IMG/VR virus record: IMGVR_UViG_3300043436_003602
Coordinates: 1-64,000 of that record
DNA: 64,000 nt
From: a virus
Direction: 5' to 3' (one strand)
The notes beneath the pieces were generated by a model. It ran no database searches and had not been told where the DNA came from. It saw nothing but the letters and a program-made list of their open reading frames with translations. The position numbers were made by a program, and so were the translations under genes. This document shows, piece after piece, positions 7,026 to 52,142 of this stretch. Each line of letters starts with the position of its first letter. Position 1 is the stretch's first letter.

Positions 7026-7517
7026 ATGATTATTATTGAAGGTATGGACAACAGCGGTAAGTCGACACTGGCCCAAGCGATGGCTTCTTATATGGGGTTG
7101 ATCGTTCAAGAAAGTGAAGGGCCGCCACTCGACGCTGCGGAGATAAATGCTCGCGTTGATCGATACGAGGGCATGACGGATCGCCTGTTCGTTCGCCACC
7201 CTGTGGTATCCAATGCAATTTACGGCCAGGTTCGTGAAGAGGGCGACCCGATCACCTTCGGCCGGCGAGTGTTGTTTTACGATCAGGGCCATACCTTTAT
7301 CTACTGTGATGCCGGGCAGCGCGGCTTGGGCGCACACGTCGAAAAGGCTCACGATACCGAGAAGCACCTCGAGGACATCACCAACAACTACAACAAGCTG
7401 CTCTATCTCTATCGGCAATGGGCCGCTGAGCATGCTCACTTCATCTATCGCATCGGCGATGATATGGACCAGCTGATCAGCACGGTCTACTTCTACCTCA
7501 ACTACCAACAGTCGTAA
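7026..7517 (+). CDS. P-loop nucleotide kinase, dNMP/thymidylate kinase-like (163 aa)
   Basis: A P-loop lies at the very N-terminus (IIIEGMDNSGKST, residues 2-14) as in thymidylate kinases, with RHPVVSN near residue 58 in place of the usual DR motif. At 163 residues it is shorter than cellular TMKs (about 205-215). GAGGA lies eight bases before ATG 7026. The longer upstream frame lies in the promoter. It probably phosphorylates a deoxynucleoside monophosphate made by the neighbouring ThyA-like, pyrophosphatase and deaminase genes. The substrate cannot be told from sequence. Confidence 0.75.
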   Translation: MIIIEGMDNSGKSTLAQAMASYMGLIVQESEGPPLDAAEINARVDRYEGMTDRLFVRHPVVSNAIYGQVREEGDPITFGRRVLFYDQGHTFIYCDAGQRGLGAHVEKAHDTEKHLEDITNNYNKLLYLYRQWAAEHAHFIYRIGDDMDQLISTVYFYLNYQQS

Positions 7518-7533
7518 AGAAAGGAAGATGGGC

Positions 7534-8463
7534 ATGTTTACTCATCGCTACGCGGATGGCGACTTCTACACATACGTAGGAGACCAGGAGGGCAGGCACC
7601 CGGAAACGGGTAAATGGGTCAAGGGGGTTTGTTACCGAGGAGCAACCGGTGAGCTTTACTGGACCAGCGAAGCTCGATGGGAGGAAAAGTTCGAGGCACT
7701 CCCGCCCTCTCGCTTCGAAGAACAACGGATCGAGCTTACCGATCCCGGTACCGAAGAGGTGGTCGCAGCATTCGTTATGCGTATGGACGAAGTTACCGAC
7801 GTTCGCCACATGCTGCTGTCTGCTTGCAATGTTGCCAGCAAGGCCCGCGACCATCATGTCGAGATCGTCCTTCGGGCCCAGGCAGACATGATCTCCAAGG
7901 GTCTGCACATTCGCGAGGTCGACTTCCCCGACTTGATCGGCGATGTCAATGCCTTCCATGAGAAGTTCAAGCAGATCGAGCCCACAACCTACGGGGTGCC
8001 CCGGGTATTGCCCGCCGACCTATTTGACTTCCGCGTCAAGTTCCATGATGAGGAGACCGATGAGTATAGGGAAGAGCAGGAGACCCTGGTCGAGGCCTTT
8101 GACCGGGAAGACCATCGCGAGGTCGTCAACTCGCTCGAGCTTCAACTTGACGCCTTGTGCGATGCCGTATGGGTGTTGCTTGGCACCGCGGACCTTCAGT
8201 TCGGCAAGAAGATTTTCTATGAAGCCTGGAAGCGCGTCTTCAAGGCCAATATGGCGAAGGTGCTGGCAACCGAAGACCCGAACGCGAAGGACAGCGGCCG
8301 AGATGTCAAGTATGATATTCGCAAGCCCGCCGGCTGGACACCGCCCGATCACCGGGACTTGGTGCAGGAGTATCTCCGTCCTACGAAGCCTGGGGCCGAG
8401 GAGCCTGTCGAGACCAACACCTTCAATGAGCCGGTCTCCCCCGATTACTCGGGGAAAGTCTGA
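7534..8463 (+). CDS. DUF1653 plus all-alpha NTP pyrophosphatase fusion (309 aa)
   Basis: Residues 1-55 (YADGDFYTYVGDQEGRHPET, then TGELYWTSEARWEEKF) match DUF1653. The C-terminal half (DFRVKFHDEETDEYREEQ to DALCDAVWVLLGTADLQFG, then ANMAKV and KPAGWTPPDH) is the phosphoribosyl-ATP pyrophosphohydrolase/MazG-like fold of phages, with the metal-binding E-rich helix and downstream D. ATG 7534 is preferred over 7528 because AAGGAAG is then six bases away. A likely role is hydrolysing a dNTP to dNMP plus PPi to reshape the nucleotide pool. It overlaps the next gene at GTCTGATGA. Confidence 0.8.
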   Translation: MFTHRYADGDFYTYVGDQEGRHPETGKWVKGVCYRGATGELYWTSEARWEEKFEALPPSRFEEQRIELTDPGTEEVVAAFVMRMDEVTDVRHMLLSACNVASKARDHHVEIVLRAQADMISKGLHIREVDFPDLIGDVNAFHEKFKQIEPTTYGVPRVLPADLFDFRVKFHDEETDEYREEQETLVEAFDREDHREVVNSLELQLDALCDAVWVLLGTADLQFGKKIFYEAWKRVFKANMAKVLATEDPNAKDSGRDVKYDIRKPAGWTPPDHRDLVQEYLRPTKPGAEEPVETNTFNEPVSPDYSGKV

Positions 8464-9296
8464 TGAAGAGCGAGTGGGTTCAAGCCGTCCTGAAGATGAG
8501 TCATCGAAAGGCTGATCTATATTCGGGATGCAGGAAGATCATTCAGGGTAAATCGATCCTGTTCCACGACCTGTGGGATAGCGAAGACCCCCTCGTCCTG
8601 GAGGATGCGGGCTATACCAGAAGCAAGCTCGCTCACCTGGTTCGGGGATACGTGCATGAGGAGTCGATTGAAGCGGCATTGATGCTGTGGAAGTTGAGGA
8701 GGCAGAAAACCTCCTACGGCTCTGTGGGTTTCACCTGCTACAATCACTTCCTCAAGAACGACGCGGTGAAGAAGTCGAAGCGCGCCTCTGTCATGGGACC
8801 GTGCATCCAGGCTATCACAATAACCCAAGTAAAAGGCGGTAAGAAAGGACAGTACTTCATCGACTGTTTCTACCGCACGACCGAGCTGCTCAAGAAGTTT
8901 CCCGCCGACCTGGTCTTCATCCGCGATGTCCTGCTCAAGGACTTCGACTTTAGCGGTATGGAGTTTCTGGGGATGCGGTGTCACTTCGCTAACATCACGG
9001 TCCACCCCGCTTACTTTGCGACGGTGATCCCGCACCTAGAAGACCCGATTGCTGAACTTGAAAAGCTCAAGAAGAAGGATCGGTATTTCTACGACTGGTG
9101 TATCAAGTGGACCGCCCGCTACTTGTGCGAGGAACATCATCGCGGTATTGCCAAACACGCCCAGTCGCAGAGAGTGAAGGTCGATGCTGAAAAGCGCATC
9201 AAGGGTAAGCTTCGCCGCAAACTGATTGACTACTTGAGAGCCAACCACCCGGGTCATACCCGAGGCTATGAAGAACCTGAAGGAGATGAAGAATGA
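8463..9296 (+). CDS. Thymidylate synthase-superfamily protein, divergent (277 aa)
   Basis: The ThyA core is visible but diverged. The nucleophile region GPC gives Cys114, then CFYRTTE (Arg138 equals the phosphate Arg of QRS-D), and 11 residues later Asp149, where ThyA has its base-selecting Asn. MRCHFANITVHP carries a later His174. ThyA's conserved Asp after RS is Glu141 here. Asp at the Asn position is the known switch of dCMP hydroxymethylases such as T4 gp42. The likely activity is methylation or hydroxymethylation of a deoxypyrimidine monophosphate, or a non-catalytic partner of the next gene. The alignment is by eye. It overlaps its neighbours by 1 and 4 bases. Confidence 0.6.
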   Translation: MKSEWVQAVLKMSHRKADLYSGCRKIIQGKSILFHDLWDSEDPLVLEDAGYTRSKLAHLVRGYVHEESIEAALMLWKLRRQKTSYGSVGFTCYNHFLKNDAVKKSKRASVMGPCIQAITITQVKGGKKGQYFIDCFYRTTELLKKFPADLVFIRDVLLKDFDFSGMEFLGMRCHFANITVHPAYFATVIPHLEDPIAELEKLKKKDRYFYDWCIKWTARYLCEEHHRGIAKHAQSQRVKVDAEKRIKGKLRRKLIDYLRANHPGHTRGYEEPEGDEE

Positions 9297-10135
9297 TGTA
9301 TCGAGATTTTGAAGCCGCCATTGAAGACGTCCGGGCTCGCCTAAAAGGCGGTGGTGAGATCGTCCACAGTCGGCGCTGGCAGGGCGTTGAGATTGCGGCT
9401 AATCCCAATATGGCATGCCTCGAGGTAACTCACCTGCACCTCGAAATCCCCATGGATGGTTACGAAGAAGACCTCGAGGCTTACGCTCGGCATATTGGGC
9501 CTGACCTCCCCTGGGCTGACAATCACTTCGAGGAACGGGTAAGTGGCTACCCGATCAATCCGGGCACGGAGTTCAAGCACTGGCCCTGGAACAAAGGCCG
9601 AGGCGCCGAGTCGTTCCTCGACCGTCGGGGCAAGTTCAATCATAACTACATGGAGCGGTATTGGCCGAAGCAGGCTCACGTTATCGCGGAGCCGACTTCT
9701 TCGCGCTCAGACTATCGGTCGCGTTATCGGGACTATTTCCAGACGGGCAAGGTCACAACCATGAAGGGCATCGTGTATGAGTATGGCGACCTTCGAGACG
9801 TGGTGGACCTGATGATCGATGATCCGCTGACGCGGCAGGCCTACTTGCCTGTGTGGTTCCCCGAGGACACCGGCGGCGGTGAGAAGCGAGCACCCTGCAC
9901 CCTCGGCTATCACTTCATGATGCGGAATGACCGTCTCTCGATCAACTACCATATTCGCAGCTGTGACTTCGTCAAGCACCTCCGCAACGATCTTTACTTG
10001 ACGGCTCGCCTCGTCATCTGGATGCTGCATCAGCTCCGGTCGCGTGATCCTCGGTGGAAGGACGTGAAGGTGGGCGACTTCGTCATGCAGATTGGCTCCC
10101 TGCATTCCTTCAAGCCGGATTGGGAGTTGATCTGA
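9293..10135 (+). CDS. ThyA-family dNMP C5-transferase, possibly dCMP-specific (280 aa)
   Basis: A clearer ThyA homologue: RAPC nucleophile Cys202, then exactly 20 residues on (as in E. coli ThyA) IRSCD with Arg222, Ser223 and Asp225. Asp233 stands where ThyA has the Asn that selects dUMP, and GSLHSF gives His271 with Phe for the usual Tyr. Asp at the Asn site suggests dCMP as substrate, hence a cytidylate methylase or hydroxymethylase, but this is inferred from spacing. ATGATG at the start overlaps the previous stop by four bases, so the paralogues are coupled and may form a heteromer. Confidence 0.65.
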   Translation: MMYRDFEAAIEDVRARLKGGGEIVHSRRWQGVEIAANPNMACLEVTHLHLEIPMDGYEEDLEAYARHIGPDLPWADNHFEERVSGYPINPGTEFKHWPWNKGRGAESFLDRRGKFNHNYMERYWPKQAHVIAEPTSSRSDYRSRYRDYFQTGKVTTMKGIVYEYGDLRDVVDLMIDDPLTRQAYLPVWFPEDTGGGEKRAPCTLGYHFMMRNDRLSINYHIRSCDFVKHLRNDLYLTARLVIWMLHQLRSRDPRWKDVKVGDFVMQIGSLHSFKPDWELI

Positions 10136-10335
10136 TGCAGATTAACACCCTTTTCGACATCGGGGATCAGGTAACCATCGACCGCGACGATAGCGGAGTG
10201 ATTGTGGGTCTAATCTTGGCGGTTAACACTCGCGGAACGGGCCTCAACGTCACCTATGACGTAGCCTGGTTCCACAACGGGCAGTCCTGCTCGGCCTGGA
10301 TCGAGGAATGGAGGCTGAACAAATGGGGAGAATAA
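10135..10335 (+). CDS. Small SH3-like phage protein (66 aa)
   Basis: A short beta-rich protein (FDIGDQVTIDRDDSGVIVG, ending AWIEEWRLN), the pattern of small phage barrels of unknown function. Its ATG shares a base with the stop of the ThyA-like gene (TGATG), and its end overlaps the deaminase start. No function is assigned. Confidence 0.65.
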   Translation: MQINTLFDIGDQVTIDRDDSGVIVGLILAVNTRGTGLNVTYDVAWFHNGQSCSAWIEEWRLNKWGE

Positions 10336-10820
10336 GCAGAGAGCAAATGTTCATGGACATGGCTCGGGCGGCATCACGCCGCTCGACCTGTTTCCGTTTG
10401 AACGTCGGCGCAATCGTCATCCAGGGGAACAACCCCATAGCGGTTGGCTACAATGGTCATGAGCCCGGCGCGCCTCACTGCGCGGGAAACTCTTGCCCCG
10501 GTGTAGTGCCCGGTAAATGCGGAACCCGTCACGCCGAGGTTAATGCTTTGGAAAAGGCAAAGACCCTCCTGCTCGGCCGGCACCGCAAGCCCGTGGACCT
10601 GTACTGCACAGATAGCCCGTGTAGTGCTTGCGTCGACTATATCATCCGCGAACGGGATAAGGGGATGACCGGTATCCAGGTTGACCGCATCTTCTATGAA
10701 ACACCCTATCGTGATACCAGTCACCTTAGTCGACTTCATGGAGTGATAGAAGTTTACTTGGTGACACCGGCAGGATATGTTGTCGATAACTTCTCTCGGC
10801 GCGTAGTGGTGACTCAATGA
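10323..10820 (+). CDS. Deoxycytidylate deaminase-like enzyme (165 aa)
   Basis: The zinc-dependent deaminase motifs are present: HAEVNAL (catalytic His-x-Glu) and TDSPCSAC (two zinc Cys). The N-terminal helix and the CAGNSCPG insertion are as in dCMP deaminases. It converts dCMP to dUMP, linking the cytosine and thymine pools. GGAGG lies eight bases before ATG 10323, inside the previous gene. With two ThyA-like proteins upstream and a ThyX at 46.7 kb, this phage has unusual redundancy in C5 pyrimidine chemistry. Confidence 0.85.
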   Translation: MGRISREQMFMDMARAASRRSTCFRLNVGAIVIQGNNPIAVGYNGHEPGAPHCAGNSCPGVVPGKCGTRHAEVNALEKAKTLLLGRHRKPVDLYCTDSPCSACVDYIIRERDKGMTGIQVDRIFYETPYRDTSHLSRLHGVIEVYLVTPAGYVVDNFSRRVVVTQ

Positions 10821-13396
10821 GCAAACGACAAGTAATGATCATCGGGGAACAGCCCCAGATCAATCCTCGCGCCAAGTCTATATTGATGGATGCTCTAAAC
10901 CAGGCGGGCTTCGAAGAGCGAGACTTTCGGTGGATAAACGTCCTCGAAGAAGGCCCGCCTGAGGGTAAAAACGTCACCAAGACCATGATTAAGAATGCCA
11001 AGGAAAAGCTCCTGGCAAAGATCGATAAGCGAGACCCTCGGTATGTCGTCCTTCTTGGAAATACTCCGTGTCAGGCTGTCCTTGACCGAGCCGGTATCAG
11101 GAAGCTCAGGGGCAAGCCGCTCGAACACCAGAAAAGGGTCGTCCTCCCGATCCTCCATCCGAACCAGGCGCTCCATGATGATAAGTGGATCGACATCATC
11201 GAGTCCGACCTCCAGCGACTGAGGGAGTGCGTCGACTTCGGTGGCATTCCTGAAGAGCGTGAGCTGGACTACCATATCGTGGACACCTGGGACAAGGTGA
11301 AAGCGATGCTCAGGGACATACGGGGCACTGTCGCTATCGACTTGGAGTGCACCCGCCTTTACCCCTTCACTACACAGCTTGACGAGCTTGTTGCTTCCGG
11401 ACGGGCTTCACAGGATGCCATCAAAGAACACCGAGCCACCCACAGCGGTAACCAGCCCGCTGTCGTGGCTATGCAGTTCGGCTGTCGCAAGCGTCAATGG
11501 GTAGTCCCGATGGAAACCGCGGGCGTCTGGTCACGCCATGAGCTCGAGAAGATCGTAAAGCTCGCAACTCGAAAGCTCAAGGATTGCTTCACAGTATTCC
11601 ACAATGGCAAGTTCGACTGCCTGTGGATGCTGGTTCGTTTCGGCGTCAAGTGGACAGTCGACTTTGATACGATGCTCGCCCACTACTTGGTGGATGAGAA
11701 TGACTTTCATGGACTGAAATACCTCGCGCAGAAGTTTATCGGTGCACCCGACTGGGACGTTGAAGGTAAGGAAAAGACTGCTTGGTCACCAAAGAATGCC
11801 AAATATGCAGCCCATGACGTTTACTATACCCGGAAGCTGAGGCTCATCCTCAAGAAGATGCTCGAGGAGGACCATGATGTTAAGCGGGTCCATGACTGGA
11901 TCATGATCCCGTGCATCAAGTTATTCATTGAAGCTGAGTTTACGGGTATCCAAATCGATCTCGACAAGATGGACGATGCGGAAAACTACCTGCGCGAGGA
12001 ATTAGCCACCGCACTCGGTAACCTCGAGAAGTGGGGCAAGGAAGCGTCCAAGGTTGACAAGAAGACCGGCAAGATCAACTGGGGCAGTCCCGATCAACTG
12101 GGCAACCTCTTATTTGTAGACCTTAAGATCAAGTCTGTCGAAAAGACCAAAGCCGGCAAGGAGAGCGTCAGTGAGTCCGTTCTCAATCGTATCGACCATC
12201 CGATGGTCGGCGACCTTCTCAAGTTTAGGGCTGCACAGAAGCAACTCTCCGGTTTCATCGAGGGATGGAAACCTTACCTTGATCTTAACGGACGGCTGCA
12301 TCCAGTATTCAAATTGCACGGTACCGTTACCGGTCGGCTTTCTTGTGAGCATCCCAATCTACAGCAGGTTCCCCGAGACCCCCGTATTAGAACACTCATT
12401 ACTGCTCCCGATGGTTGGGAGCTTATCGAAATGGATCTCTCTCAGATCGAGCTCAGGATCGCTGCCGAGTTGGCGGATGAGCACAATCTACTGGGAGTCT
12501 TCAATTCAGGAGGTGACCCTCACTGGCAGACTGCTATTCGAGAAATCGAGCGAGGAGCAGGATACAAGAGGGAAATACGACAAACCATAAAATTCCACCA
12601 CGAGCTCGAGGGTAAAGAATATGTGAAGATGAATTACAGCGAAGCCATCGAGTATATCCTTGAGTTAGGGGGTAAGGCTTGCGAAGGCTTGATGGACATG
12701 TGGGAACAAACATACCCCGGCGTCGAGTTCATGAACTGGAAGGAGACACGTAAGAAAGCAAAGGCGATCAACTTCGGGTATCTCTACGGCATGTGGTGGA
12801 AGAAGTTTAAGATATATGCCCGAGATAACTACGGTGTCAACGTCACAGATGATGAGGCACAGGCATCCCGTGAAGCCTTCTTCGAGCTGTATCCTGGGTT
12901 CCCAAAGTGGCACGAGCGTCAGCGTAGGTTCGCACAGGTCAACGGTTACGTTCGCTCACTCAGCGGGCGCAAACGTCGACTACCGGCTGCTGCGACCGGT
13001 CGTGATACGCCTGAGAGGCGCGAAGCACAGCGCCAGGCGATCAACTCGCCGGTGCAGTCGTTCGCCAACGAGCTGAACCTGATGGCGGCGATCCAGATGC
13101 GTAAAGAATTCCACAAGTCGTGGTTCCGTATTGTCGGCACTGTGCATGACGCCATCCTTATGTGGGTTCGCAAAGATAAGGTGGAGCACGTATTTAACCG
13201 GGGGCTCGAGATCATGAGTCATCCCGAGTTGCTCGATGACTTCGAGATCGAGATGAGTGTTCCGATTGAAGCAGATGGTAAGGTTGGCCCTTGGGGCGCA
13301 GGAAAGGACTTAGGAAAATGGTTAAAAGCTCAAAACGACAACTCATCATCGACCCCAAGCACGGACAAGGGTTTGCGGCGAAAAAGAGTGGTGTAG
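10817..13396 (+). CDS. Family A DNA polymerase with N-terminal UDG-like domain (859 aa)
   Basis: Residues 1-150 look like a family 4/5 uracil-DNA glycosylase fold (MIIGEQP, VVLLGNTPCQAVL, KLRG, PILHPNQALH). A DnaQ/Pol I-type 3'-5' exonuclease follows (AIDLECT near 175, NGKFDCLW, YAAHDVYYTRKL). The polymerase has motif A DLSQIELRIAAEL near 541, motif B KAKAINFGYLYG near 649 and motif C VHDAI near 776. It is the replicative polymerase. The UDG-like part lacks an obvious GxPFVG motif, so it may only sense template bases. It overlaps the deaminase by four bases. Confidence 0.92.
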   Translation: MSKRQVMIIGEQPQINPRAKSILMDALNQAGFEERDFRWINVLEEGPPEGKNVTKTMIKNAKEKLLAKIDKRDPRYVVLLGNTPCQAVLDRAGIRKLRGKPLEHQKRVVLPILHPNQALHDDKWIDIIESDLQRLRECVDFGGIPEERELDYHIVDTWDKVKAMLRDIRGTVAIDLECTRLYPFTTQLDELVASGRASQDAIKEHRATHSGNQPAVVAMQFGCRKRQWVVPMETAGVWSRHELEKIVKLATRKLKDCFTVFHNGKFDCLWMLVRFGVKWTVDFDTMLAHYLVDENDFHGLKYLAQKFIGAPDWDVEGKEKTAWSPKNAKYAAHDVYYTRKLRLILKKMLEEDHDVKRVHDWIMIPCIKLFIEAEFTGIQIDLDKMDDAENYLREELATALGNLEKWGKEASKVDKKTGKINWGSPDQLGNLLFVDLKIKSVEKTKAGKESVSESVLNRIDHPMVGDLLKFRAAQKQLSGFIEGWKPYLDLNGRLHPVFKLHGTVTGRLSCEHPNLQQVPRDPRIRTLITAPDGWELIEMDLSQIELRIAAELADEHNLLGVFNSGGDPHWQTAIREIERGAGYKREIRQTIKFHHELEGKEYVKMNYSEAIEYILELGGKACEGLMDMWEQTYPGVEFMNWKETRKKAKAINFGYLYGMWWKKFKIYARDNYGVNVTDDEAQASREAFFELYPGFPKWHERQRRFAQVNGYVRSLSGRKRRLPAAATGRDTPERREAQRQAINSPVQSFANELNLMAAIQMRKEFHKSWFRIVGTVHDAILMWVRKDKVEHVFNRGLEIMSHPELLDDFEIEMSVPIEADGKVGPWGAGKDLGKWLKAQNDNSSSTPSTDKGLRRKRVV

Positions 13397-45494: not shown

Positions 45495-46031
45495 ATGAAT
45501 ATCTTTGCCGTATCACGTCACCCCTCACGCTGTGCTCGAGCACTCGATGACGGGCGGTTAAACAAGATGATCCTTGAAGCTACCCAAGTTCTATGCACCG
45601 TCTTCAATCTTGAGGCTGACACGACAGGTAAGTCTATGGTAACTCCCTACCGAAACTCGCATGTCCATAACCCTATCACCAAGTGGACTCAGTCTTCAAA
45701 GCATCATCAAGCTTGGCTATATGCTTTGGGTATCGCCTATGGCGAGGAAATCATCTACCGCTTCGGTCGTAAGCATGCCTGTCAGCTTGTTCTCGAAGGG
45801 TTAACCTTCAGGTATCCGCACTTACTCAAGTATCGAGAACTACAAATCGGGGAGTTCCACAATGGCGCTCGTCATCGTAAGTTGGGTCTTGACTTTACCC
45901 ACCTACCCGCGGGTAAAGCCTACCGTGCTTACTTACGTAGACGTTGGGAACTTCAAGAGACAACCCCCACTAAGAGCGGTAGGATTATACCTCCCCGCTG
46001 GACCCGCAGAAAGGAACCGATATGGCGCTAG
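45495..46031 (+). CDS. Phage protein resembling pyrimidine-dimer glycosylase family (178 aa)
   Basis: The N-terminus MNIFAVSRHPSRCARALDDG, then RLNKMILEATQ, and the central NSHVHNPITKW with FGRKHAC resemble a conserved phage family annotated as Pyr_excise/T4 endonuclease V-like. True repair activity is not established for this family, and T4 endoV's key N-terminal Thr is not obvious. Call made from recollection of the pattern. Confidence 0.5.
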   Translation: MNIFAVSRHPSRCARALDDGRLNKMILEATQVLCTVFNLEADTTGKSMVTPYRNSHVHNPITKWTQSSKHHQAWLYALGIAYGEEIIYRFGRKHACQLVLEGLTFRYPHLLKYRELQIGEFHNGARHRKLGLDFTHLPAGKAYRAYLRRRWELQETTPTKSGRIIPPRWTRRKEPIWR

Positions 46032-46722: not shown

Positions 46723-47553
46723 ATGGAAGTAAAGATCGTAGCGGATAGTATCAGTAACCAGATGATCCGCTTGACCACCTTGCACCTTCGCTACTGGCGA
46801 CCGATACACTCCGAGCTGATGACGCACCGAGTGTTCTCACGCAATGCACGATCCAGCCGAGCTGTGCCGGTCGTGACGCTACTGAGCGAAGGCAAGTTCA
46901 TTCCCCAGTTCGGGATGAACCAGCGGGGTATGCAATCGACACTTGCACCCTCGCCTGAGCTTCAGGACAAGTGGGCCCGCGAGTGGAATGAGCTTGCTGA
47001 GATTACTCGGTCTTACGTTGCTCGGTGGGGCGATGAGGGTATGCACAAGCAACATGCCAATCGTCCGCTCGAGTGGTTCGGTTGGATCGATGTGTTGGTG
47101 ACCTCGACCTACTGGGACAACTTCTGGGCACTGCGTATCGATGCAGCCGCTCAACCTGAGCTGCGTCAACTCGCTGAAGCGATGAAAGGAGCAATGGACG
47201 CCTCGAAGCCGAAGCTGTTGCTGCCTGGTGATTGGCACCTGCCCTACGTTCTTGACTCCGAACGTCAGGAAAAGCTCGAATTGCTTTTGAAGCTGTCCAC
47301 AGCCCGGTGTGCGAGGCTGTCCTATCGGCCGTTCGACGGCAACGCGGACCATGAGGCTGAAATTGATCGGTATAACCGCCTCGTCGTCAGTCAGCCGGTC
47401 CACGCTTCGCCTGCCGAACACCAAGCAACACCGGACTCCTGCATGGACAGCGGCCGAACAAGGGTGTGGAGTAACCCTCGACTTCATGGTAATTTCCATG
47501 GGTGGGTGCAGCATCGGAAGTGTATCGCCAACGAAGCGGTCATGGAGGCGTAA
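46723..47553 (+). CDS. thyX: Flavin-dependent thymidylate synthase (ThyX) (276 aa)
   Basis: The ThyX signature HR-x2-S-x-N-x2-S-x-R is intact (THRVFSRNARSSRAVPV, about residues 30-46). CARLSYRPFDG and QPVHASPAEHQATP, then HGNFHGWVQHRK, match the phage ThyX C-terminus. It methylates dUMP to dTMP using FAD and folate, so this phage has a dTMP route independent of its two ThyA-like proteins. ATG 46723 follows AAAGG by nine bases. Confidence 0.88.
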   Translation: MEVKIVADSISNQMIRLTTLHLRYWRPIHSELMTHRVFSRNARSSRAVPVVTLLSEGKFIPQFGMNQRGMQSTLAPSPELQDKWAREWNELAEITRSYVARWGDEGMHKQHANRPLEWFGWIDVLVTSTYWDNFWALRIDAAAQPELRQLAEAMKGAMDASKPKLLLPGDWHLPYVLDSERQEKLELLLKLSTARCARLSYRPFDGNADHEAEIDRYNRLVVSQPVHASPAEHQATPDSCMDSGRTRVWSNPRLHGNFHGWVQHRKCIANEAVMEA

Positions 47554-51233: not shown

Positions 51234-52142
51234 TCAATCTGATATATCCCACTCGGGGCGAAGGGCAAGAAACCCGGGATGGCGGGGCTTATTCTTCTGT
51301 CCCATCTTCTGTTTCTTGCACTTCATGATTGCGCCGGCCGCCACCAGCTCATCCTTGATAGCCCAAAAATCTTTTCGCTGTCCGGCCGTAAGTCCTCCTC
51401 CGACCCTAACTTCAACCCCCGTCGGCTTACCTTTGGAGTCAAGTTCTTCACCGATGAAGCCGCCAAGTGTGCCTTTCGGCTTTTTCCCCGCCTTCGCCGA
51501 CGACCTCTTAAGCTTTCCCGTGGCTTCCCGCTTTGCTTCATTCGTATTCTCCTCTTCCTCGAAGTATCCCGTGATACGGGCTTCGAAGTCTTCAAAGGGC
51601 TTGACCTTGAGCATCCATTGCTCACGAAGCGTGGACTTACCGAACTTGTAAGGGCCATCCGGTGATCGAGTTATGATACCTTCATAACCCATCTGCAGCC
51701 GACGTTCCAGGTATTCCTCGAGCTCATCAAGACTCTCAATCAGCTTCGGCTTGAGGAAGTGAACGCGGGGATGGTCGATGTCGCGGATAATCTGTTGAGT
51801 AAGCCGAAGGCGATCCTCGTAGCGATAGCCGAGCTGCGGCGTGTCAAAGCACCACAGGTGGAAGTCCGGCTCACCATTCTTCGACGTGAGGCCGCTCGAC
51901 GTGCGACCGAGCACTCCTTCACCGCGACGATTGCCGACGACGGCCTCGCTGTCAAGCAGGGGCTCCTTGAATATCCTGCTGAGCTCTCGGTCGAAGTGCA
52001 CGTTGGGGAAGGGCGACAGCCGGGAGGTCAATGGTCGATGGGACAAAACGCAACGAAACCCGTCAATCTTCGGGAAGGCGTAAACAGGTAGTCGAACCTT
52101 TGACAGGTCCTCAATCTGGTCGCCCTTCATGGGACGCTTCAT
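51234..52142 (-). CDS. ATP-dependent DNA ligase (302 aa)
   Basis: Adenylation motif PKIDGFR with the nucleotide-accepting Lys25, motif III/IIIa FHLWCFD, motif IV GYEGIITR and motif V QWMLKVKPF. A C-terminal OB-like domain (TLGGFIGEEL, EVRVGGG). A T7-like small ligase that seals nicks. ATGA overlap with the upstream gene. It lies far from the replication module. Confidence 0.9.
   Translation of the reverse strand: MKRPMKGDQIEDLSKVRLPVYAFPKIDGFRCVLSHRPLTSRLSPFPNVHFDRELSRIFKEPLLDSEAVVGNRRGEGVLGRTSSGLTSKNGEPDFHLWCFDTPQLGYRYEDRLRLTQQIIRDIDHPRVHFLKPKLIESLDELEEYLERRLQMGYEGIITRSPDGPYKFGKSTLREQWMLKVKPFEDFEARITGYFEEEENTNEAKREATGKLKRSSAKAGKKPKGTLGGFIGEELDSKGKPTGVEVRVGGGLTAGQRKDFWAIKDELVAAGAIMKCKKQKMGQKNKPRHPGFLALRPEWDISD

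What the first reader, a model, noticed from the sequence alone, without database searches (positions are those of the whole stretch)
7026..10820. T4-like gene set for cytosine modification or replacement, with two Asp-type ThyA homologues
Seen: a dNMP kinase-like gene, an NTP pyrophosphatase, two tandem ThyA-superfamily genes and a dCMP deaminase form one operon before the polymerase. By eye both ThyA-like proteins have Asp (Asp149 and Asp233) exactly 11 residues after the phosphate-binding Arg, where ThyA has the Asn that selects dUMP. Known: that Asn-to-Asp change defines dCMP hydroxymethylases such as T4 gp42, and T4 combines it with a dNMP kinase, a dCTPase and a dCMP deaminase. A separate ThyX (46723) frees these from dTMP synthesis. 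Inference: virion DNA may carry a C5-modified cytosine. No glycosyltransferase is visible.
Basis: partly seen in the sequence, partly recalled or inferred. Interest (0 to 1): 0.85.

Follow-up and report, generated by a model that had tools for sequence, protein, structure and literature searches.

The report
Paired enzymes for modified phage cytosine
This phage carries a gene set that very probably makes a chemically altered form of the DNA letter C, using one enzyme of the T4 type and an always-adjacent, never-characterised sister enzyme that is shared by about a hundred other phage sequences.

Summary
Window 7026-13396 is one overlapping operon: dNMP-kinase-like gene, NTP pyrophosphatase, two tandem thymidylate-synthase-fold (TS-fold) genes T1 and T2, dCMP deaminase, PolA. 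Both TS-like proteins have Asp 11 residues after the phosphate Arg (T1 R138/D149, T2 R222/D233). This Asp is in 60/60 aligned T2 and 109/110 aligned T1 relatives. A ThyX gene lies elsewhere. No glycosyltransferase was found in the ORFs scanned. Asp177 marks cytosine selectivity but does not prove hydroxymethylation: the 5-hydroxy-dCMP synthase AfhB (closest solved structure to both proteins) and TS N229D dCMP methylase also have it. T2 keeps folate-contact residues of T4 gp42 (D169, R175) that AfhB lacks, so a dCMP hydroxymethylase is favoured; yet T2 is its own clade, outside gp42 and AfhB. T1 is not a plain second gp42: only its predicted fold places it in the TS superfamily, and it seems to lack the folate-binding segment. 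It was found only beside T2 (99 of 122 T2 genes), from Alphaproteobacteria phages to mycobacteriophage Muddy. Best reading: a new two-protein variant of the T4-type cytosine-replacement cassette, T1 being an uncharacterised partner or tailoring enzyme.

The parts
7026..7517 (+). P-loop dNMP kinase-like protein (163 aa), candidate kinase for the modified dCMP
   Evidence: phrog_761 thymidylate kinase 2e-9; Pfam Thymidylate_kin only 0.087, below cut-off; conserved first in the cassette of relatives
7528..8463 (+). MazG-like NTP pyrophosphatase (311 aa; pyrophosphohydrolase domain about 129-286), candidate dCTPase
   Evidence: phrog_671 1.2e-17; annotated NTP-PPase, MazG or dUTPase in relatives
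8463..9296 (+). T1: TS-fold protein (277 aa) with C114, R138, E141, D149; function unknown; obligate companion of T2
   Evidence: AlphaFold2 pLDDT 91.6; all top PDB fold matches are TS superfamily, best AfhB 4.9e-6; invariant residues
9293..10135 (+). T2: dCMP-type TS-superfamily enzyme (280 aa), probable dCMP 5-hydroxymethylase; C202, R222, D225, D233, H271
   Evidence: PF00303; phrog_160; AlphaFold2 pLDDT 90.1 and fold match; residue signature
10135..10335 (+). small ORF (66 aa), role unknown
   Evidence: start overlaps the T2 stop; no significant family
10308..10820 (+). dCMP deaminase (170 aa)
   Evidence: PF00383 4.5e-17, PF14437 1.7e-10, phrog_174 3e-32; within 8 kb of 96 of 99 T1-T2 pairs
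10817..13396 (+). family A DNA polymerase with N-terminal uracil-DNA-glycosylase-like domain
   Evidence: PF00476 1.9e-71, PF01612, PF03167 5e-9; UDG family 4 2e-9; beside 95 of 99 T1-T2 pairs
46723..47553 (+). ThyX, flavin-dependent thymidylate synthase, supplying dTMP independently of T1 and T2
   Evidence: phrog_85 1.4e-77, PF02511 2.4e-7
51234..52142 (-). ATP-dependent DNA ligase, a domain type associated with modified-cytosine DNA in MetaGPA
   Evidence: phrog_114 1.5e-47; PF01068 5.4e-9; PF14743 1.7e-5, below its cut-off

Best explanation
This is a nucleotide-level cytosine-replacement cassette. The pyrophosphatase breaks down dCTP to dCMP. T2 binds dCMP through Asp233 (position 177 of E. 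coli ThyA), forms the Cys202-C6 adduct, takes a one-carbon unit from methylene-tetrahydrofolate and lets water attack, giving 5-hydroxymethyl-dCMP. The kinase-like protein starts its phosphorylation to the triphosphate, and the phage PolA incorporates it. The deaminase turns surplus dCMP into dUMP, and ThyX makes dTMP. T1 works with T2: it is a TS-fold protein with its own Cys and cytosine-type Asp but apparently without a folate site, so it is either the second subunit of a T1-T2 complex or acts on the T2 product. Shown: gene content, fold, residues, co-occurrence. Inferred: all activities, the choice of hydroxymethyl, the role of T1, and modification of virion DNA.
For: Asp177-equivalent invariant in T2 (60/60) and near-invariant in T1 (109/110). 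T2 has Cys, R126, R166, H207 and Thr/Ser147 as T4 gp42 does. T2 keeps Asp169 (59/60) and mostly Arg175 (47/60), residues that contact the pterin and the glutamate tail of tetrahydrofolate in T4 gp42 (PMC6400193), whereas AfhB relatives have Asn169 and Gln175 (15/15). T2 ends 7 residues after its HxF motif, so like gp42 it lacks the C-terminal tail that keeps water out in ThyA. Asp177 plus loss of His147 marks modified-cytosine contigs, and the pyrophosphohydrolase and deaminase domains co-occur there. Support genes are conserved: deaminase 96/99, PolA 95/99. Separate dTMP synthases occur here (ThyX), in two Manatee Spring phages (ThyX) and in Triscuit (canonical TS). T1 was found only with T2, apart from one contig that ends just after T1.
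Against: AfhB, a 5-hydroxylase, is the closest solved structure to both proteins by fold and, narrowly, to T2 by sequence profile. T2 is not nested in the gp42 clade. The T1 role is not determined by any data. About 13 contigs carry T2 without detectable T1, so T1 is not always needed. No glycosyltransferase was seen, so bare 5hmC would stay open to Type IV restriction. The substrate specificity of kinase and pyrophosphatase is untested.
Confidence: 0.58

Rival explanations
1. T2, or T1, is a 5-hydroxy-dCMP synthase like AfhB of Mosigvirus phages: a flavin-using TS-superfamily enzyme that puts OH directly on C5, giving 5-hydroxycytosine in DNA, normally glycosylated later.
For: AfhB (9iqu, 9iqc) is the top fold hit for both proteins and top sequence-profile hit for T2 (6e-7). 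T2 shares Phe at position 209 with AfhB. AfhB also has Asp177. The activity is established for Mosigvirus (PMC13390438).
Against: T2 has Asp169 and mostly Arg175 where all 15 AfhB relatives have Asn and Gln. MilA, a CMP hydroxymethylase, scores almost the same as AfhB (1.2e-6). T2 is a separate clade. No sugar-nucleotide genes or glycosyltransferase seen.
Confidence: 0.2
2. T2 is a dCMP C5-methylase, so the DNA carries 5-methylcytosine made before replication, as in phage Xp12 (100% 5mC).
For: ThyA N177D and TS N229D are dCMP methylases (cited in PMC8670742), so Asp alone allows this. Xp12 DNA is fully 5mC (PMC7653180).
Against: T2 lacks the C-terminal tail that seals the site against water in ThyA. 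His147 is lost, as in gp42.
Confidence: 0.12
3. T1 and T2 form an obligate heterodimer in which one subunit is regulatory or structural, so only one modification reaction takes place. (This can hold together with the best explanation; the number is the chance that T1 is such a subunit.)
For: T1 found only beside T2; 34 of 99 pairs overlap by 4 nt and 63 lie within 60 nt. TS enzymes are dimers that share arginines across the interface (general knowledge of the family). T2 has Gln at position 127 and T1 has no recognisable Arg pair there.
Against: T1 keeps its own Cys and Arg without exception and its Asp in 108/109, unusual for a dead subunit. T2 exists alone in about 13 contigs.
Confidence: 0.3
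4. Ordinary nucleotide salvage: the cassette only raises dTMP supply and the DNA is unmodified.
For: Annotators call T2 a thymidylate synthase; dCMP deaminase and dUTPase-like pyrophosphatase fit dTMP synthesis.
Against: Asp177 is invariant and disfavours dUMP. The phage and several relatives carry another dTMP synthase.
Confidence: 0.1

Closest known systems
T4 gp42 dCMP hydroxymethylase and the T4 gp1/gp56/gp42/cd set
   Same: Cys, Thr after Cys, R126, R166, D169, R175, D177, H207 in T2; short C-terminus; kinase-like, pyrophosphatase and dCMP deaminase neighbours
   Different: T2 is a separate clade with a long insertion, Gln at 127, His at 173 and Phe at 209; a second TS-fold protein T1 is present; no DNA glucosyltransferase seen
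AfhB, 5-hydroxy-dCMP synthase of Escherichia phage HY126 and Mosigvirus (PDB 9iqu, 9iqc)
   Same: Closest solved fold to T1 and T2; PCT motif, Asp177, Phe209
   Different: Asn169 and Gln175 in AfhB against Asp and mostly Arg in T2; AfhB lies in a sugar-modification cluster of a T4-like phage
MilA, CMP 5-hydroxymethylase (mildiomycin pathway)
   Same: Second-best sequence-profile hit of T2 (1.2e-6), cytosine substrate
   Different: Cellular biosynthesis enzyme acting on CMP; no paired second protein in this comparison
MetaGPA modified-cytosine contigs (thymidylate synthase, carbamoyltransferase, PRA-PH, deaminase, ligase domains)
   Same: Asp177 and non-His147 TS with pyrophosphohydrolase, deaminase and DNA ligase domains
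   Different: No carbamoyltransferase found here; whether T1-T2 phages are among those contigs was not checked
phrog_34294 (unknown function) and the 'hypothetical' or 'pyrimidine hmase synthase' neighbours in other phages
   Same: This is the T1 family
   Different: No function has been assigned; the label looks like a domain name carried over, not an assay

Membership tests
dCMP hydroxymethylase (T4 gp42 type), tested for T2 | catalytic Cys and Asp at ThyA position 177 | tested here: met
   C202 and D233 invariant in 60 relatives
dCMP hydroxymethylase (T4 gp42 type), tested for T2 | folate-contact residues Asp169 and Arg175 of T4 gp42 | tested here: met
   D225 in 59/60; R at 175 in 47/60; gp42 family D 57/57 and R/K 56/57
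dCMP hydroxymethylase (T4 gp42 type), tested for T2 | falls inside the gp42 clade | tested here: not met
   separate clade, support 0.986; so it works like gp42 but is not filed as a gp42 orthologue
dCMP hydroxymethylase (T4 gp42 type), tested for T2 | makes 5-hydroxymethyl-dCMP from dCMP and methylene-tetrahydrofolate | not testable with these tools
   needs enzyme assay
5-hydroxy-dCMP synthase (AfhB type), tested for T2 | AfhB signature RSQN...VMQLD (Asn169, Gln175) | tested here: not met
   T2 is RSCD...HFRDD
5-hydroxy-dCMP synthase (AfhB type), tested for T2 | flavin binding | not testable with these tools
   no structure coordinates or assay available
thymidylate synthase ThyA (dUMP), tested for T1 and T2 | Asn177 | tested here: not met
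   Asp in both
TS superfamily, tested for T1 | TS fold | tested here: met
   pLDDT 91.6; all top 50 PDB matches are TS superfamily, best 4.9e-6
TS superfamily, tested for T1 | significant sequence-profile match to a TS family | tested here: not met
   none in Pfam, NCBIfam or PDB chains; hhalign 0.2%
folate-dependent TS or dCMP hydroxymethylase, tested for T1 | catalytic Glu58 and helix B/C folate wall | tested here: inconclusive
   only 52 residues between the first strand and the RR-strand equivalent, against about 88 in E. coli ThyA as I recall its structure; near-invariant Lys/Arg at 55 where Glu58 might sit; no superposition possible
T4-type cytosine replacement cassette | dNMP kinase, dCTPase and dCMP deaminase | tested here: met
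   all three gene types present in one operon; substrate specificity not testable
T4-type cytosine replacement cassette | DNA glucosyltransferase | tested here: inconclusive
   none among about 27 ORFs scanned; not every ORF was scanned

The most novel reading that the evidence does not exclude
T1 is a folate-free thymidylate-synthase-fold enzyme that uses its Cys and cytosine-type Asp to re-form the reactive methylene on hydroxymethyl-dCMP and attach a different group, so T1 and T2 together make a cytosine base not yet described, in a lineage that includes therapeutic mycobacteriophage Muddy.
Probability: 0.15. Interest if true: 0.88.

Novelty: new variant of a known kind. Interest (0 to 1): 0.6.

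Why it matters
The T1-T2 pair is a conserved unit in phages of Alphaproteobacteria, Gammaproteobacteria and Actinobacteria, including cultured and therapeutic phages (Muddy) whose DNA could be tested directly. If they carry modified cytosine, this bears on restriction escape, CRISPR use, sequencing and engineering of these phages. It adds a further independent cytosine-selective clade (T2) to the TS superfamily beside gp42 and AfhB. It also names an uncharacterised TS-fold family (T1) whose invariant Cys and near-invariant Asp make a sharp biochemical question.

Tried and rejected
Sequence profiles of T1 against Pfam, NCBIfam, PDB chains, ThyA, T4 gp42, SPO1 gp29 and T2 gave nothing significant, so sequence homology of T1 to TS is not claimed. 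Contamination of the iterated T1 HMM by deaminases was suspected for short downstream hits and rejected: they have the C...R-x10-D pattern and no deaminase motif, and form a shorter T1-like subfamily. T1 was sought on both strands in T2-only contigs and not found. The 'pyrimidine hmase synthase' label in database records is treated as an annotation name, not as evidence. EcoRI digestion of Brevundimonas phage isolates is mentioned in PMC10070969 without a result per phage, so it decides nothing. Structural superposition was not possible because model coordinates are not exposed. Papers on 5-hydroxycytosine biosynthesis (bioRxiv 10.1101/2025.06.16.659550) and arabinosyl-hydroxy-cytosine (10.1016/j.chom.2025.06.005) were not held; their content is taken second-hand from PMC13390438.
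Full report
Check of the observation. The window is 64,000 bases of a 64,180-base virus record. Its tail genes (phiJL001 Gp84, BR0599, Rcc01698-like) fit a siphovirus related to the gene-transfer-agent tail type. Genes overlap: pyrophosphatase/T1 by 1 nt, T1/T2 by 4 nt (ATGA), deaminase/PolA by 4 nt. R138 to D149 in T1 and R222 to D233 in T2 are both 11 apart.

Is it more than chance? T2 relatives are common in viral contigs: 348 loci passed confirmation and 80 were kept. In 84,980 prokaryote genomes only five were found. With the phage records this gave 122 distinct T2 proteins. Where aligned, D177, C146, R126 and R166 are invariant, position 147 is nearly always Thr or Ser (T4 gp42 has Thr), position 127 is nearly always Gln and position 209 nearly always Phe. 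An iterated profile joined proteobacterial T1 with the 'hypothetical' genes just upstream of T2 in actinophages such as Muddy 47, Gibbous 43, Zuko 75 and Triscuit 64. In 109 distinct T1 proteins, C114, R138 and Y63 are invariant, D149 is 108/109 and E141 103/109, although identities fall to about 20%. The R-x10-D pattern is therefore a conserved feature of both families.

What T1 and T2 are. T2 is a TS-superfamily member by sequence (PF00303 1e-5, phrog_160 1.6e-29). T1 has no significant sequence match to any TS family. Confident AlphaFold2 models (T1 mean pLDDT 91.6, T2 90.1) both hit TS-superfamily structures. The best match for both is AfhB, the dCMP hydroxylase of phage HY126 (T2 2.6e-12, T1 4.9e-6). 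The best viral model for T1 is the uncharacterised T1 homologue of PMBT14.

Which reaction for T2? Asp177 alone cannot tell hydroxymethyl from hydroxy or methyl. It is invariant in 57 gp42 relatives and in 15 AfhB relatives, and ThyA N177D makes 5-methyl-dCMP (PMC8670742). AfhB-type enzymes make 5-hydroxy-dCMP (PMC13390438). The motif after R166 separates the groups: gp42 RSND...G(Y/F)RND; AfhB RSQN...VMQLD; T2 RSCD...RHFRDD; T1 R(T/S)(T/S)E...KKFxAD. In T4 gp42, Asp171 (169) reaches the pterin and Arg177 (175) the glutamate tail of tetrahydrofolate (PMC6400193). T2 has Asp at 169 in 59/60 and Arg at 175 in 47/60; the 15 AfhB relatives never do. T2 also ends soon after the HxF motif, and T4 gp42 likewise lacks the C-terminal tail that closes the ThyA site to water. 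I infer a folate-using dCMP hydroxymethylase as most likely, the AfhB reaction as next. On a tree of the core region T2 is a separate clade (support 0.986) from gp42, AfhB and ThyA, so T2 works like gp42 but is not filed as a gp42 orthologue.

What does T1 do? T1 was found with T2 in all loci but two: one contig that ends just after T1 (L056), and a short excerpt of the window itself that cuts T2 (L001). Of 122 T2 genes, 99 have T1 upstream; 34 pairs have the 4-nt overlap and 63 lie within 60 nt. Around the pairs, dCMP deaminase is present in 96 and PolA in 95. About 13 contigs have T2 without T1 on either strand; of those looked at, two carry a C5-cytosine methyltransferase-like gene (L140 confirmed by Pfam, L131 by eye) and two an N4/N6 methyltransferase-like gene (L155 confirmed by Pfam, L135 by eye) beside T2. 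T1 is short between its first strand and the RR-strand equivalent and has an extra all-helical C-terminus. A near-invariant Lys or Arg (K55) sits where the catalytic Glu might be expected. Without coordinates this is not proven. Hypotheses, in order: partner subunit of T2; tailoring enzyme acting on the T2 product; second dCMP-modifying enzyme. Some phages have two T1 copies (L080) or a third, shorter TS-like gene after T2 (PMBT14, L128, L147), which suits a multi-part system.

Surroundings. ThyX (46723-47553) can supply dTMP. Manatee Spring relatives carry ThyX inside the cassette and Triscuit carries a canonical TS as well as T1 and T2. The DNA ligase (51234-52142, minus), the deaminase domains PF00383 and PF14437, and the TS domain are all among the domains MetaGPA found associated with modified-cytosine DNA. 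No glycosyltransferase or carbamoyltransferase appeared among the ORFs scanned, though not every ORF was scanned.

Verdict. Observation confirmed; interpretation partly supported. A C5-modified cytosine made at the dCMP level is likely (about 0.7 by my judgement), hydroxymethyl most likely among the options. New here: T2 as a further Asp177 clade, and T1 as an uncharacterised TS-fold family locked to it. Nothing in sequence can prove that virion DNA is modified; LC-MS of any cultured relative would settle it.

Noticed in passing
L089:9604-10152 (PMBT14); also L090, L123, L128, L147, L158: A third, short TS-like gene (about 180-226 aa, motif GDFCLVGG...YRSLELIGGFxYD) downstream of T2, recovered by the T1 profile.
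   Followed up: partly
L080:7926-9529; L139:6903-9874; L086:7926-11300: Two T1-type genes in one phage, in L080 directly in tandem before T2.
   Followed up: partly
L034:4716-5576 (Achromobacter JWX); L035:4617-5501 (Salmonella PA13076): More ThyA-like full-length enzymes also have Asp at position 177, a further independent group that may act on dCMP.
   Followed up: no
L140:6884-8005; L131:6444-7700; L155:7126-7995; L135:7117-7998: Phages with T2 but no T1 carry a C5-cytosine methyltransferase-like or N4/N6 methyltransferase-like gene beside T2.
   Followed up: partly
window 10817-13396: PolA carries an N-terminal family-4-like uracil-DNA glycosylase domain, also matched in 67 of 99 T1-T2 phages; possibly linked to removal of deaminated modified cytosine.
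   Followed up: partly
window 45495-46031: Protein with a weak match to pyrimidine dimer DNA glycosylase (PF03013, 0.0027) and phrog_624 DNA-binding protein.
   Followed up: no
L015:4504-6771: A T1-like gene followed by two T2-like genes in tandem; the first T2-like copy is strongly diverged.
   Followed up: partly
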